DNA from: Acidisarcina sp.
GTDB taxonomy: Bacteria; Acidobacteriota; Terriglobia; Terriglobales; Acidobacteriaceae
Direction: 5' to 3'
Length of the DNA stretch: 64,000 nucleotides
NCBI GenBank assembly: GCA_035539175.1
Contig: DATLIY010000007.1
Location: 744,001-808,000, forward strand
Position numbers and translations under genes: made by a program. The notes under the pieces are model-generated. The model did not search any database. It was not told the origin of the DNA and was given only the letters and a program-made list of their open reading frames with translations. Of the stretch, positions 3,909 through 9,286 are shown piece after piece; positions within the stretch are counted from its first letter, which is position 1, and every line of letters starts with the position of its first letter.

Positions 3909-4940
3909 ATGAAATCCGCATTGAATGCACTGCGCCTTGTGTACCCGCCTGTTTCAAATCAAGAAGGCGAATGGTTAAAGAAGGATAGCGAAGTGGAAGA
4001 AATGCTCAGGCGCAGTGATCTCTATATGATCGGTCAACGCCGAGAAGCCAAATTCGTTTGGGACAAGCAAAATGTTCTAGGATTCGGAGTGTTCGGCGGG
4101 CAAGGAATTCGTTTCAAGTTCGAAATTCCAGGGGTGGCGACATCCGAGGTAGAACTCTCGATAGAAAAAGATCTTCGAAGTAGCAAGACCCTATATTACG
4201 ACGTCGGTGACAAACACGTGCGCTGCTCCCTCAAGCCCCAAAAGGGTGAAGAGATCGGAGAGGTGGTCTGGTGGTATTCAACCGAATCATTGCTCTGGTC
4301 CAAGTGGCGGGGCGATCCGCGAATTAAAGGATTGGACAACTACAGAGAGTTCACCGAATACGATCTGCATTATGTGGGAATATCCACGGATCAGGATAGT
4401 TACGATCGCCTTCTAGCGAACGCCCATCACAAACGGGTAGCGATTCTCTCGAATGAAACTCAGTATGTCCCAGACGCTCGATTGACTGATGAAATCTACC
4501 TGTTTTTCTTTCAGTCCGACCCGCTTTTTATTCGCGCCTTCGACGAAGTAGACGATTTCTCAAGTTTTGGCGCACCGATGCCTTTCACAGAGAAGCAGGC
4601 ATCTGCGGATGCTGAAAAGGCATTTAGCAAGCTGTTGCAGCCGGAATATAATACCGTCAGATTCAAAACATTCCCACGCGGGAAGAACGGCTTATACGGA
4701 GCCGGTTTAGCCCGATATGCCCATGTGATATGCGAAGATATCACGTTCAAAACCCCAACCGCACGGTTTAGGGGGAGCAGCTTTGATGACCTCTTACTAG
4801 GCCGAACGCCAGGAGACGCCATTCTCGTCTCAGGAGAAGAAGTAGAACTATATCAGCACAAATCAAAGGTGAATCGTCGAAGTGGCGAAAAAGCTCCAAT
4901 TCTAGGGTCCCAAGGCAGTAGTTCTGCGAAACGTAATTAG
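3909..4940 (+). CDS. Unknown protein with degenerate GIY-YIG-nuclease-like signature
   Basis: No family could be named with certainty. The 343-aa protein is soluble, with no signal peptide or membrane segment. Three features recall the GIY-YIG nuclease fold: HYVGIS at 154-159, a following Arg167 and the histidines of AHHKR at 172-176, and a later E236 in AEKAFSKLLQPEYN (235-248). That last motif resembles the family's E-x-x-x-x-(6-8)-P-x-Y-N end. The usual first GIY strand is not seen, and about 60 residues separate the two halves, so this is inference. It is followed after 7 bases by an HNH nuclease gene, suggesting one two-gene unit. The codon usage is AT-richer than in the chromosome, in keeping with transferred cargo. 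The ribosome site (GGGAG) lies unusually close to the ATG. Confidence 0.55.
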   Translation: MKSALNALRLVYPPVSNQEGEWLKKDSEVEEMLRRSDLYMIGQRREAKFVWDKQNVLGFGVFGGQGIRFKFEIPGVATSEVELSIEKDLRSSKTLYYDVGDKHVRCSLKPQKGEEIGEVVWWYSTESLLWSKWRGDPRIKGLDNYREFTEYDLHYVGISTDQDSYDRLLANAHHKRVAILSNETQYVPDARLTDEIYLFFFQSDPLFIRAFDEVDDFSSFGAPMPFTEKQASADAEKAFSKLLQPEYNTVRFKTFPRGKNGLYGAGLARYAHVICEDITFKTPTARFRGSSFDDLLLGRTPGDAILVSGEEVELYQHKSKVNRRSGEKAPILGSQGSSSAKRN

Positions 4941-4947
4941 GTGGCCA

Positions 4948-5727
4948 ATGGCAGGTATACAGCGTCAGGACGCGCGGAAGATACTCAAGATTATCGCCAG
5001 TAGCCAAGCCAAAAATGAATTGCTGACCTATTCAGGATTGGCAGTGACCATGGGCCGTCCTGCTGACAACTCCCGCGCCATGGCATCCACATGCAATCTT
5101 CTTGATGCCGCGGCGTGTCTCGCAGATGTTCCGCTTGTCGCCATTGTGGCTGTTCGCTCGCAAACAGGCGAGGTCAATCCGGCCGCCTTCGCGAGAGAAT
5201 TCGATGAAGCTCAACGGCAGAACATAATTCAGAGGTCTCAGAACCATAAATTTACGGCGGCTGACTTTCAAGCCATAGCAACGGGGCTAGAAGATCTGGG
5301 AGACAAAGGAGCCGTAAGGGCATGGCAATTTGTAGAGAATCTATATCCGGGCAATCTCCTATATCTCAGACTTATAGGTGATTACGCCGAGAGCAAGTCA
5401 AATGCAATCGACGATCTCGGTTCGGTCACACCAGATCGATCAATATCGGAAGTGTGGACGTATTCGCGTGATCCCGGGGTGCGTGAAGCAGTCTTGCTGC
5501 GGGCCAATGGAAGATGTGAATTTTGTGGAAAGCTCGGTTTCGTGAAGCCCGACGGAACACGCTACCTGGAATCGCATCACGTGATTGCATTGGCCAATGA
5601 GGGTGAAGACAGGGTCACGAACGTGATGGCGCTCTGTCCCAACGATCACAGGGAAGCTCACTTTGGAGAGAGGCGAGACGAGATCGAAGCACAAATGGTG
5701 CTCATGCTCAACACCTTGAATCCTTAG
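4948..5727 (+). CDS. HNH endonuclease with distinct N-terminal domain
   Basis: Probable DNA nuclease of the McrA-like HNH class, 259 aa. The C-terminal domain has a zinc-finger type HNH: C190-E-F-C193, the H210-H211 pair, N225, then C230-P-N-D-H234 and H238. The N-terminal third contains LTYSGLAVTMGRP (26-38) and LLDAAACLADVPL, which recalls the winged-helix 'TYGELA' region of alkyltransferase-like DNA-binding proteins. This could be the target-recognition part, but that is inference. The ATG has a GGTGG site 5 bases upstream and starts 7 bases after the partner gene. Restriction, anti-phage or element-maintenance roles are all possible. Confidence 0.8.
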   Translation: MAGIQRQDARKILKIIASSQAKNELLTYSGLAVTMGRPADNSRAMASTCNLLDAAACLADVPLVAIVAVRSQTGEVNPAAFAREFDEAQRQNIIQRSQNHKFTAADFQAIATGLEDLGDKGAVRAWQFVENLYPGNLLYLRLIGDYAESKSNAIDDLGSVTPDRSISEVWTYSRDPGVREAVLLRANGRCEFCGKLGFVKPDGTRYLESHHVIALANEGEDRVTNVMALCPNDHREAHFGERRDEIEAQMVLMLNTLNP

Positions 5728-7551: not shown

Positions 7552-8826
7552 ATGGCAATGAAGTACCAGAAGGGCACCGTCTACCCCAGCGGCAAGAAGG
7601 TGAAGATGTGGTACGGGAAGTACCTGATCTACGGACAGGACAACGAAGGGAAGGAGGTCCGCAAGCATCGCAACGTTGCAATCTGCCCCAAAGCCGGCAA
7701 TCCGAAATGGAAGGCAGAGCAGCTCTTGCGAGAGATGATTCTGAAAGAATGCGGGATTCTCTCTGAAATACCTCGCGTTCAGCAAGAGGAAGCTGTGACG
7801 TTCCGTTGGTTCGTGAAGGAACGATACATCCCAATGCGCCAGGGCAAATGGAGCCCGGCATACAAGCAAACCAACACCGATCAACTTGAACGGTACGTGA
7901 TCAAGAGGTTTGGGGACGTTCCGCTCGCCAAGCTGGATTCCTTTCAGATTCAGATCTGGTTGAACGGCATGGCGGAGAAGTATTCCGAATCTGTCGTTCG
8001 ATCCTGCTTTTCGAACATTCGCGCGATTACGGCGATGGCCCGCAAGCAAAAGTTCCTCGCGGAAGACCCCGGAGAAGACGTGAACATGCCTCAGACCAAA
8101 ACGGTCGAAAAACCAGTGATGACGCAGGAACAGATTTTGGGCCTGGTCAACGCTGTTGAGGATATGCACGATCTATGTCTGCTTCAGATAGGGATCTTTT
8201 GTGGCCCTCGCGCGAGCGAGGTAATGGGGCTGCAATGGAAGTCCTGGACGGGTGAAGCGCTGTTGCCCTACGGGACGGCCTACGAGGGACAGTTCTTCGC
8301 CGGTCGTCTGAAGACGAAGCAGAGCAAGGCTCCGATCCCGGTTCCCGAGCAAGTTCGGCCTGTGATCGAGGCTTGGCGACGGCTCTCGAAAGACTCCTCG
8401 CCGGAGGCTCTGATGTTCCCAACATTCGGACGCGGGGAACGGAAGGGGCAGGCGGTACCGCGCTGGGGGAAGAATTTCCTCCGCTGGCGTGTCCGTCCAA
8501 TCGCCCGGAAGCTGGGTATCCCAGACCGGCTCGTCACCTTTCAGGTGATGCGGCGGACACTGGGAACAGACATGCAGCAGCACGGCACGCTAAAGGACAC
8601 GCAGGGCATGTTGCGGCACGCGAGCATCAAAACCACGGGGGATGTCTACGTTCAAACAATCGAACATAGCGTTCTTGCGGCGGTCAACTCGCGCACGTCA
8701 GCGGTGCTCGGCGATTGGAGCATGCCGGAAGATCGTTTGGGCTTGAAGGGGAGGAATCTGAAAGGTCTGAATGAAATTCGGCGAAGTTCGGCGAAGTCGA
8801 TTGGGAGGGAGGCTGTAAGTGCTTGA
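7552..8826 (+). CDS. int: Tyrosine site-specific integrase of the mobile element
   Basis: Catalyses integration and excision at the tRNA-Asn site. The 424-aa protein has an N-terminal arm-binding region (1-80), a core-binding SAM-like domain (about 82-175) and a C-terminal catalytic domain. Visible catalytic residues are R220 (GPRASEVMGL), a lysine near 254-259, R334 in QVMRRTLGT, H356 (LRHASIKTT) and the nucleophile Y366 (DVYVQ). The box II histidine of the usual HxxR is Gln331 here, a tolerated but uncommon change. GGAG lies 7 bases before the ATG. The stop codon is 5 bases from the 3' end of tRNA-Asn, which identifies the target. Confidence 0.93.
   Translation: MAMKYQKGTVYPSGKKVKMWYGKYLIYGQDNEGKEVRKHRNVAICPKAGNPKWKAEQLLREMILKECGILSEIPRVQQEEAVTFRWFVKERYIPMRQGKWSPAYKQTNTDQLERYVIKRFGDVPLAKLDSFQIQIWLNGMAEKYSESVVRSCFSNIRAITAMARKQKFLAEDPGEDVNMPQTKTVEKPVMTQEQILGLVNAVEDMHDLCLLQIGIFCGPRASEVMGLQWKSWTGEALLPYGTAYEGQFFAGRLKTKQSKAPIPVPEQVRPVIEAWRRLSKDSSPEALMFPTFGRGERKGQAVPRWGKNFLRWRVRPIARKLGIPDRLVTFQVMRRTLGTDMQQHGTLKDTQGMLRHASIKTTGDVYVQTIEHSVLAAVNSRTSAVLGDWSMPEDRLGLKGRNLKGLNEIRRSSAKSIGREAVSA
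8777..8796 (+). repeat. Tandem 10-bp repeat near the attachment site
   Basis: Two perfect back-to-back copies of TTCGGCGAAG sit inside the 3' end of the integrase gene, about 36 bases from the tRNA. Each copy is itself nearly palindromic (TTCG-GC-GAAG). Arm-type sites for integrase or excisionase often lie in this position, but they may be only low-complexity coding sequence. Confidence 0.4.
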
Positions 8827-8830
8827 TTTA

Positions 8831-9286
<456 letters not shown>

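What the first reader, a model, noticed from the sequence alone, without database searches (positions are those of the whole stretch)
3909..5727. Two-gene nuclease cargo: GIY-YIG-like protein plus HNH protein
The sequence shows two tightly spaced genes of AT-richer composition inside a conjugative element. The second has a clear HNH nuclease domain. The first has YVGIS, Arg167, AHHKR and a late E236 with PEYN, which together resemble a split GIY-YIG nuclease with a large insertion. Two different nuclease folds in one operon on an element that must defend its host against phage and rival plasmids suggest an undescribed defence or restriction module. Function is inference.
Basis: partly seen in the sequence, partly recalled or inferred. 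Interest (0 to 1): 0.75.

Follow-up and report, generated by a model that had tools for sequence, protein, structure and literature searches.

The report
Uncatalogued defence-linked nuclease-like gene family
Two neighbouring genes on a mobile DNA element look like DNA-cutting enzymes; they do not appear to be a fixed pair, but the first belongs to an uncatalogued protein family that repeatedly sits beside bacterial anti-virus genes and carries most of the signature of a known type of DNA-cutting enzyme.

Summary
In detail: two ORFs (343 and 259 aa, 7-nt gap) of lower GC lie on a 51-kb integrative element in tRNA-Asn, bounded by a 63-bp direct repeat. The second gene has a McrA-type HNH domain. 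The first matched nothing in Pfam, NCBIfam, PADLOC, PHROGs or PDB, yet has relatives in Proteobacteria, Actinobacteria, Bacteroidetes and an Acidobacteriaceae MAG. Y155-x-G157, R167, E236 and N248 are invariant in 32 aligned members and in the most distant relative (25% identity). E236 and N248 are 12 apart, as in the GIY-YIG enzyme R.Eco29kI. This supports a divergent GIY-YIG core, but the fold is unproven: the AlphaFold model matched nothing in PDB, and the GIY half (Y39) rests on conservation alone. The pair is not a conserved module: no HNH relative in 38 loci of the first gene's relatives. Those often adjoin defence genes (Gabija, Hachiman, Old, a Ppl-like ATPase overlapping by 4 bp); the element itself carries type I RM, a short-Argonaute pair and Hachiman. 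Best reading: an undescribed defence-associated, probably GIY-YIG-like family; the HNH gene is a local neighbour.

The parts
3909..4940 (+). P0001, 343-aa member of an uncatalogued defence-associated family; probable divergent GIY-YIG-like nuclease
   Evidence: ORF; 0 hits in Pfam, NCBIfam, PADLOC, PHROGs, PDB; relatives; invariant residues
4023..4037 (+). Residues 39-43 (YMIGQ), nearly invariant Y39; candidate for the GIY half (weak)
   Evidence: Y39 in 31 of 32 rows and 6 of 6 of A1; profile test of residues 30-50 against UvrC P = 0.17
4371..4379 (+). Y155-V-G157, the YIG half motif
   Evidence: Y and G invariant in 32 of 32 and 6 of 6 of A1; strand 150-158 in the model; aligns to YVG of UvrC-type domains
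4407..4436 (+). R167 ... H173 ... R176 on the helix after YIG
   Evidence: all three invariant in 32 of 32; in A1 R167 and R176 6 of 6, H173 5 of 6; helices 163-170 and 172-180
4614..4652 (+). E236-x(8)-P-x-Y-N248, candidate metal-site Glu and Asn tail
   Evidence: E236 and N248 invariant in 32 of 32 and 6 of 6 of A1; spacing 12 as in R.Eco29kI E142-N154; model pLDDT below 50 at 246-248
4948..5727 (+). P0002, 259-aa HNH protein; McrA-type HNH in its C-terminal third, N-terminal 160 aa of unknown kind
   Evidence: PF01844; EcoKMcrA 6ghc_A E 4.3e-16 over 171-257; PADLOC mREase_IV 3.7e-17 over 171-254
7552..8826 (+). tyrosine-type integrase of the element (name recalled from its sequence and position; not scanned)
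   Evidence: ORF; next to the tRNA and repeat
8821..8883 (.). right att-like repeat, exact 63 bp, partner at C7:701722-701784 (window coordinate -42278)
   Evidence: tRNA-Asn 8832-8906 (-)

Best explanation
The first gene (3909-4940) is a member of an undescribed family of roughly 310-350-aa proteins that travel with anti-phage systems. It most likely is a metal-dependent nuclease with a divergent UvrC/GIY-YIG-type active site: Y155 and R167 act on water and phosphate, E236 holds the metal, N248 completes the site, and the GIY half (perhaps Y39) is separated from YIG by more than 100 residues that may carry target recognition. It probably cuts invading DNA, alone or beside whichever defence operon it sits next to. 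The second gene is a McrA-type HNH nuclease that shares its transcript in this element, not a fixed partner. Shown: family, conservation, neighbourhoods, element. Inferred: shared transcript, fold, nuclease activity, target, defence function.
For: Conservation: among the columns invariant in 32 of 32 rows are Y155, G157, R167, H173, R176, E183, D194, E195, D234, E236, Y247, N248 and P256. In the most distant relative, L006 (25% identity), H173, E183, D194 and Y247 change, but Y39, Y155, G157, R167, E236 and N248 stay. The pattern Y.G-x(7-14)-R-x(30-120)-E-x(8)-P-x-[YF]-N hit 41 of 560 ORFs of 200 aa or more: 39 family members or duplicate copies of the window gene and 2 ORFs from loci fetched with the GIY-YIG model; it fits 10 of 10 UvrC-type domains, 29 of 32 family members and 11 of 50,000 shuffles of P0001. 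Profile comparison of segments 146-182 + 222-262 with the 10 UvrC-type domains aligns 60 columns with both YVG and P-x-[YF]-N in register, score 23.0; 0 of 200 column shuffles reach it, maximum 18.9; against 18 other GIY-YIG domains 18.7, 0 of 200, maximum 18.3. Model order: strand 150-158, helices 163-180, strand 196-209, helix 228-242. Active-site residues of R.Eco29kI (Y49, Y76, R104, H108, E142, N154): passages. Defence context: 13 of 18 neighbour proteins scanned, in 11 of 15 loci, match PADLOC at E <= 1e-10, against 1 of 10 chromosomal control proteins. The host element carries type I RM, PDC-S02, a short-Argonaute pair, PDC-S31 and HamAB.
Against: Foldseek: 0 PDB or BFVD matches at E <= 0.001; VIA-align 0 of 995 chains with Z >= 2. 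0 of 29 members match PF01541. Whole-family profile comparisons with GIY-YIG sets were weak (probability at most 3.0%, P 0.015 at best); even the cut version has HHalign probability 21.9%. The pattern fits 0 of 18 non-UvrC GIY-YIG domains. No GIY motif proper; the N-terminal segment has no profile support (P 0.17). The uncut core 146-262 aligns to UvrC over 11 columns only (P 0.011). The His is at R+6, not R+4 as in R.Eco29kI, and is lost in L006. The PEYN residues 246-248 have pLDDT below 50. I wrote the pattern after seeing both families. A fragment of L010 matching P0001 residues 121-280 folded badly (pLDDT 64.6). The scanned neighbours were chosen by size and nearness, from 15 of 38 loci. 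Rows are not independent (for example L097-L099, L027/L028).
Confidence: 0.6

Rival explanations
1. The two genes work together as a two-nuclease defence or restriction module.
For: 7-nt gap, ribosome-binding-site-like AGGTGG overlapping the stop, low GC in both.
Against: 0 of 38 relative loci hold a P0002 relative; nearly full-length P0002 relatives are scarce: 1 of 109 plasmid records with a match covers at least 80%, beside a gene annotated as a thermonuclease; in a sample of 396 genomes of the phylum 21 have some P0002 match and 1 (the window's own) has P0001.
Confidence: 0.12
2. P0001 is not a GIY-YIG nuclease; it is a sensor, adaptor or inhibitor with a fold of its own that accompanies defence operons.
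For: No fold match, no family hit, weak HHalign probabilities, further invariant residues outside the GIY-YIG pattern (E183, D194, E195, Y270, T282, G289).
Against: YxG, R, E, N in order with UvrC-like spacing, kept even in the 25% relative where other invariant residues change; 0 of 200 shuffles reach the profile score.
Confidence: 0.25
3. One or both genes serve the element itself (a homing-like or anti-competitor nuclease against rival elements) rather than phage defence.
For: Placed between the T4SS-like genes and the integrase; family members are also on 6 plasmid records and 5 IMG/VR contigs.
Against: 11 of 15 relative loci examined have a neighbour with a PADLOC match; no relative in 50,697 phage records at E <= 0.01.
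Confidence: 0.12

Closest known systems
UvrC / GIY-YIG nuclease superfamily (PF01541)
   Same: YxG half motif, helix Arg, Glu, P-x-[YF]-N tail with E to N spacing 12
   Different: no GIY motif next to YIG, more than 100 residues between Y39 and YIG, 0 of 29 members match PF01541, no fold match
CMoRE / PD-T4-3 (PMC12923530; abstract and passages seen)
   Same: defence protein with a GIY-YIG domain encoded by a single gene
   Different: CMoRE has an N-terminal GIYxY-YIG domain and a C-terminal sensor; P0001 lacks that motif, and 0 of 29 members gave a PADLOC match beyond one weak REase_II hit (whether PADLOC 2.0.0 holds a PD-T4-3 model was not checked)
SNIPE (PMC13190303; passages seen)
   Same: defence protein with a GIY-YIG domain
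   Different: SNIPE is membrane-anchored with DUF4041; no DUF4041 match among 29 P0001-family members
EcoKMcrA type HNH (6ghc_A)
   Same: P0002 residues 171-257 match its chain at 198-285, E 4.3e-16
   Different: the N-terminal 160 aa of P0002 are outside that match
Ppl-like PHP/SMC ATPase operons (PHP name by recall)
   Same: in L010, L011, L012 and L013 the P0001-family gene overlaps such an ATPase by 4 bp
   Different: no such ATPase beside P0001 in the window

Membership tests
GIY-YIG superfamily | YIG half motif | tested here: met
   Y155 and G157 in 32 of 32 and 6 of 6 of A1
GIY-YIG superfamily | GIY half motif upstream | tested here: inconclusive
   Y39 in 31 of 32 rows (the exception, L033, is a broken copy), but no G-I-Y, 116 residues from Y155, profile P 0.17
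GIY-YIG superfamily | central Arg and C-terminal Glu (PMC1564403 passages) | tested here: met
   R167 and E236 in 32 of 32 and 6 of 6 of A1
GIY-YIG superfamily | Asn of the UvrC lineage (PMC1564403 passages) | tested here: met
   N248 in 32 of 32 and 6 of 6, E to N spacing 12 as in R.Eco29kI
GIY-YIG superfamily | sequence-profile membership (PF01541) | tested here: not met
   0 of 29 members; P0001's place is not among the 2 PF01541 matches of its own genome
GIY-YIG superfamily | three-stranded sheet core fold | tested here: inconclusive
CMoRE / PD-T4-3 | GIYxY-YIG motif | tested here: not met
   motif absent in the alignments
CMoRE / PD-T4-3 | C-terminal modification-sensing domain | not tested
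   no CMoRE sequence was compared
McrA-type HNH nucleases (P0002) | HNH domain | tested here: met
   PF01844 35.6 bits over cut-off 21.4; 6ghc_A E 4.3e-16; C190-x2-C193, H210-H211, H234 and H238 present
McrA-type HNH nucleases (P0002) | modified-base sensor domain | tested here: inconclusive
   no family over its cut-off for residues 1-160 in Pfam or NCBIfam; fold not predicted
Conserved two-gene defence module | partners recur side by side | tested here: not met
   0 of 38 loci, some with flanks cut by contig ends

The most novel reading that the evidence does not exclude
The P0001 family is an interchangeable nuclease accessory: one gene that attaches in the same orientation, overlapping or within about 170 bp, to different defence operons (a Ppl-like ATPase, Gabija, Hachiman, an HNH gene here), with a GIY-YIG active site split by a large recognition insert.
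Probability: 0.3. Interest if true: 0.7.

Novelty: new variant of a known kind. Interest (0 to 1): 0.5.

Why it matters
A family found in several phyla, without a convincing match in Pfam, NCBIfam or PADLOC for 29 members and in PHROGs for P0001, and repeatedly next to known anti-phage systems is a concrete, testable candidate for a missing defence nuclease. If it is GIY-YIG, it would be a further architecture of GIY-YIG defence protein beside CMoRE and SNIPE, with the active site split by an insert. It also shows that two nuclease genes side by side on one element need not be a system.

Tried and rejected
Conserved pair: rejected on the loci held. Fold proof by Foldseek and VIA-align: no match. 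Fragment model of L010 matching P0001 residues 121-280: too poor to search with. Profile comparison with T5orf172: 11 columns, P 0.3 or worse. PDB search with the family profile: one hit, E 0.21, a mitoribosomal protein. Scans with single P0001 in genome contigs and viral contigs and single P0002 in viral contigs: nothing; alignments of P0001 relatives did find loci. P0002 in 289 genomes of the class of one relative at E <= 1e-25: none, which the tool itself says shows nothing. P0002 in phages: only its HNH part, in 7 of 50,697 records. Literature: the capped listings and passages of seven papers named no such family; this covers only that library and those terms.

A bookkeeping fault: from then on, the P0001 query file of my scripts held a gapped copy from an alignment (used). 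BLAST drops the gaps, and one search shows that its ungapped letters are identical to P0001. The shuffle count was invalid and is replaced; the ORF count does not depend on that file. Rows left out of the 32-row alignment: L007 (same contig as L010), L018, L029, L031, L039 and the plasmid rows L002-L006 (these are in A1).

Full report
Observation. The two ORFs are as described. The second starts 7 nt after the first ends, with AGGTGG overlapping the stop codon, so one transcript and coupled translation are plausible (inference). GC is 0.486 and 0.522 against 0.55-0.59 around. The setting is an integrative element: tRNA-Asn at 8832-8906, an integrase-like gene beside it, a VirB4-like gene at 615-2984 (names of integrase and T4SS genes recalled from sequence), and an exact 63-bp direct repeat about 51 kb apart. 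From 9287 on the window looks like ordinary chromosome (names recalled).

The second gene. P0002 has an HNH domain over the Pfam cut-off. The nearest solved structure is EcoKMcrA, E 4.3e-16, but only over residues 171-257, and PADLOC's mREase_IV model matches 171-254. The first 160 residues match no family over its cut-off. Nearly full-length relatives are scarce: of 109 plasmid records with a match, 1 covers at least 80% of it, a Bradyrhizobium plasmid at 46% identity, where it overlaps by 4 bp a gene annotated as a thermonuclease.

The first gene. P0001 matched nothing in Pfam, NCBIfam, PADLOC, PHROGs or PDB. tblastn found relatives in 6 of 72,556 plasmid records and 0 of 50,697 phage records. 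A pattern-based scan of 84,980 species genomes gave 31 loci, by record title in Proteobacteria, Actinobacteria (Nocardioides, Aeromicrobium), Bacteroidetes (Tenacibaculum, Flagellimonas, Allomuricauda) and one Acidobacteriaceae MAG (phylum names recalled); this is a lower bound. IMG/VR gave 5 loci, one of them the same contig as L010. In a sample of 396 genomes of the window's phylum only the window's own matches. Scanned one by one, the 29 members of alignment A3 gave scattered weak matches and no family shared by more than 2 members: Pfam, PADLOC (one REase_II hit, E 0.0086), NCBIfam (best E 0.0015, a kinase model).

GIY-YIG or not. The superfamily is described as having GIY and YIG half motifs, a central Arg, a C-terminal Glu and, in the UvrC lineage, an Asn (PMC1564403, passages). 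R.Eco29kI uses Y49, Y76, R104, H108, E142 and N154 (PMC1952068, passages). In 32 aligned family members Y155, G157, R167, E236 and N248 do not vary, and N248 follows E236 by 12 as in R.Eco29kI. In L006, the most distant relative at 25% identity, other otherwise invariant residues (H173, E183, D194, Y247) change while Y39, Y155, G157, R167, E236 and N248 stay. The combined pattern occurs in 39 family or duplicate ORFs and 2 ORFs from loci fetched with the GIY-YIG model, and in no other of 560 ORFs; in 11 of 50,000 shuffles and 29 of 32 members; in 10 of 10 UvrC-type domains but 0 of 18 other GIY-YIG domains and 0 of 5 T5orf172 domains. I wrote the pattern after looking at both families, so these numbers flatter it. 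With the region between helix 1 and helix 2 cut out, a profile comparison with the 10 UvrC-type domains runs through both motifs, score 23.0, 0 of 200 column shuffles reaching it; HHalign's own probability is still only 21.9%, and without the cut only the YVG part aligns (P 0.011; similar weak values). Against: the N-terminal candidate for GIY has no profile support (P 0.17), the conserved His stands at R+6, Foldseek found nothing in PDB or BFVD, and VIA-align nothing among 995 chains. The model itself is fair (pLDDT 80.9, pTM 0.81) and its order of elements fits, but residues 246-248 are below pLDDT 50 and I had no coordinates to check the sheet. The fragment lacking the N-terminus did not fold (pLDDT 64.6), which would fit a split core but proves nothing.

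Is it a pair? tblastn of P0002 over 38 loci of P0001 relatives (8 to 9 kb flanks where the contig allowed; L007 and L010 are one contig; several loci end early) found no relative; the only hits were copies of the window's own place. In 20 genomes that hold P0001 relatives (of 31 loci), 5 have some P0002-like HNH match elsewhere. The pair is thus peculiar to this element as far as these searches go.

What the family sits beside. Clustering of 524 neighbour ORFs and maps show that in L010, L011, L012 and L013 the gene overlaps by 4 bp the start of a 784-987-aa ATPase; PADLOC's Ppl model matches at about 1e-29 to 1e-30 in three and 4e-8 in the shorter L012. In L017 a GajA/GajB pair follows 170 bp downstream (E 9.9e-198, 8.5e-165). 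In L020 a HamB gene lies downstream after one intervening 282-aa ORF that was not scanned. L014, L019, L025, L030 and L038 have TmtA-like and PDC-S11, PDC-S73, Ppl, PDC-S28 and PDC-S51 neighbours, not all of them adjacent or on the same strand. L004 has an Old-like ATPase 2.8 kb away on the other strand. In total 13 of 18 neighbour proteins scanned, in 11 of 15 loci, match at E <= 1e-10; L034 gave none, and L003, L006 and L012 only weaker hits. The proteins were chosen by size and nearness, and 23 of the 38 loci were not scanned. Ten chromosomal proteins of the window as control: 1 of 10 matched, a ClpB-like AAA protein (name recalled). The window's own element carries type I RM with PDC-S02, a short-Argonaute pair (REase-type partner 1.3e-137, pAgo 1.4e-172), PDC-S31, HamA and HamB; all 9 cargo proteins scanned matched, and they were picked because they looked like defence genes. 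They lie 14-33 kb left of the window start.

Conclusion. The likeliest account is an undescribed, defence-associated family with a divergent GIY-YIG-type active site, and an HNH gene that happens to lie next to it here. Family and context are shown; fold, activity and target are inferred.

Noticed in passing
window -42278 to 8883 (C7:701722-752883): A 51-kb integrative element in tRNA-Asn (63-bp repeats) loaded with type I RM, PDC-S02, a short-Argonaute/REase pair (SPARDA-like, name recalled), PDC-S31 and Hachiman.
   Followed up: partly
L010:9026-11989, L011:8999-11962, L012:9026-11380, L013:4909-7872: Ppl-like ATPase overlapping the P0001-family gene by 4 bp; in L011, L012 and L013 a related 533-557-aa gene follows (no Pfam match for the L013 copy). 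Possibly a three-gene defence operon.
   Followed up: partly
L033:7712-8597: The Acidobacteriaceae MAG copy of the P0001 family looks broken into two frames.
   Followed up: no
L005:8749-9657: The Rhizobium etli plasmid copy matches P0001 only from residue 119 on; its N-terminus looks degenerate.
   Followed up: no
L041:8426-9822: The closest nearly full-length P0002 relative overlaps by 4 bp a small gene annotated as thermonuclease, on a conjugative Bradyrhizobium plasmid.
   Followed up: partly
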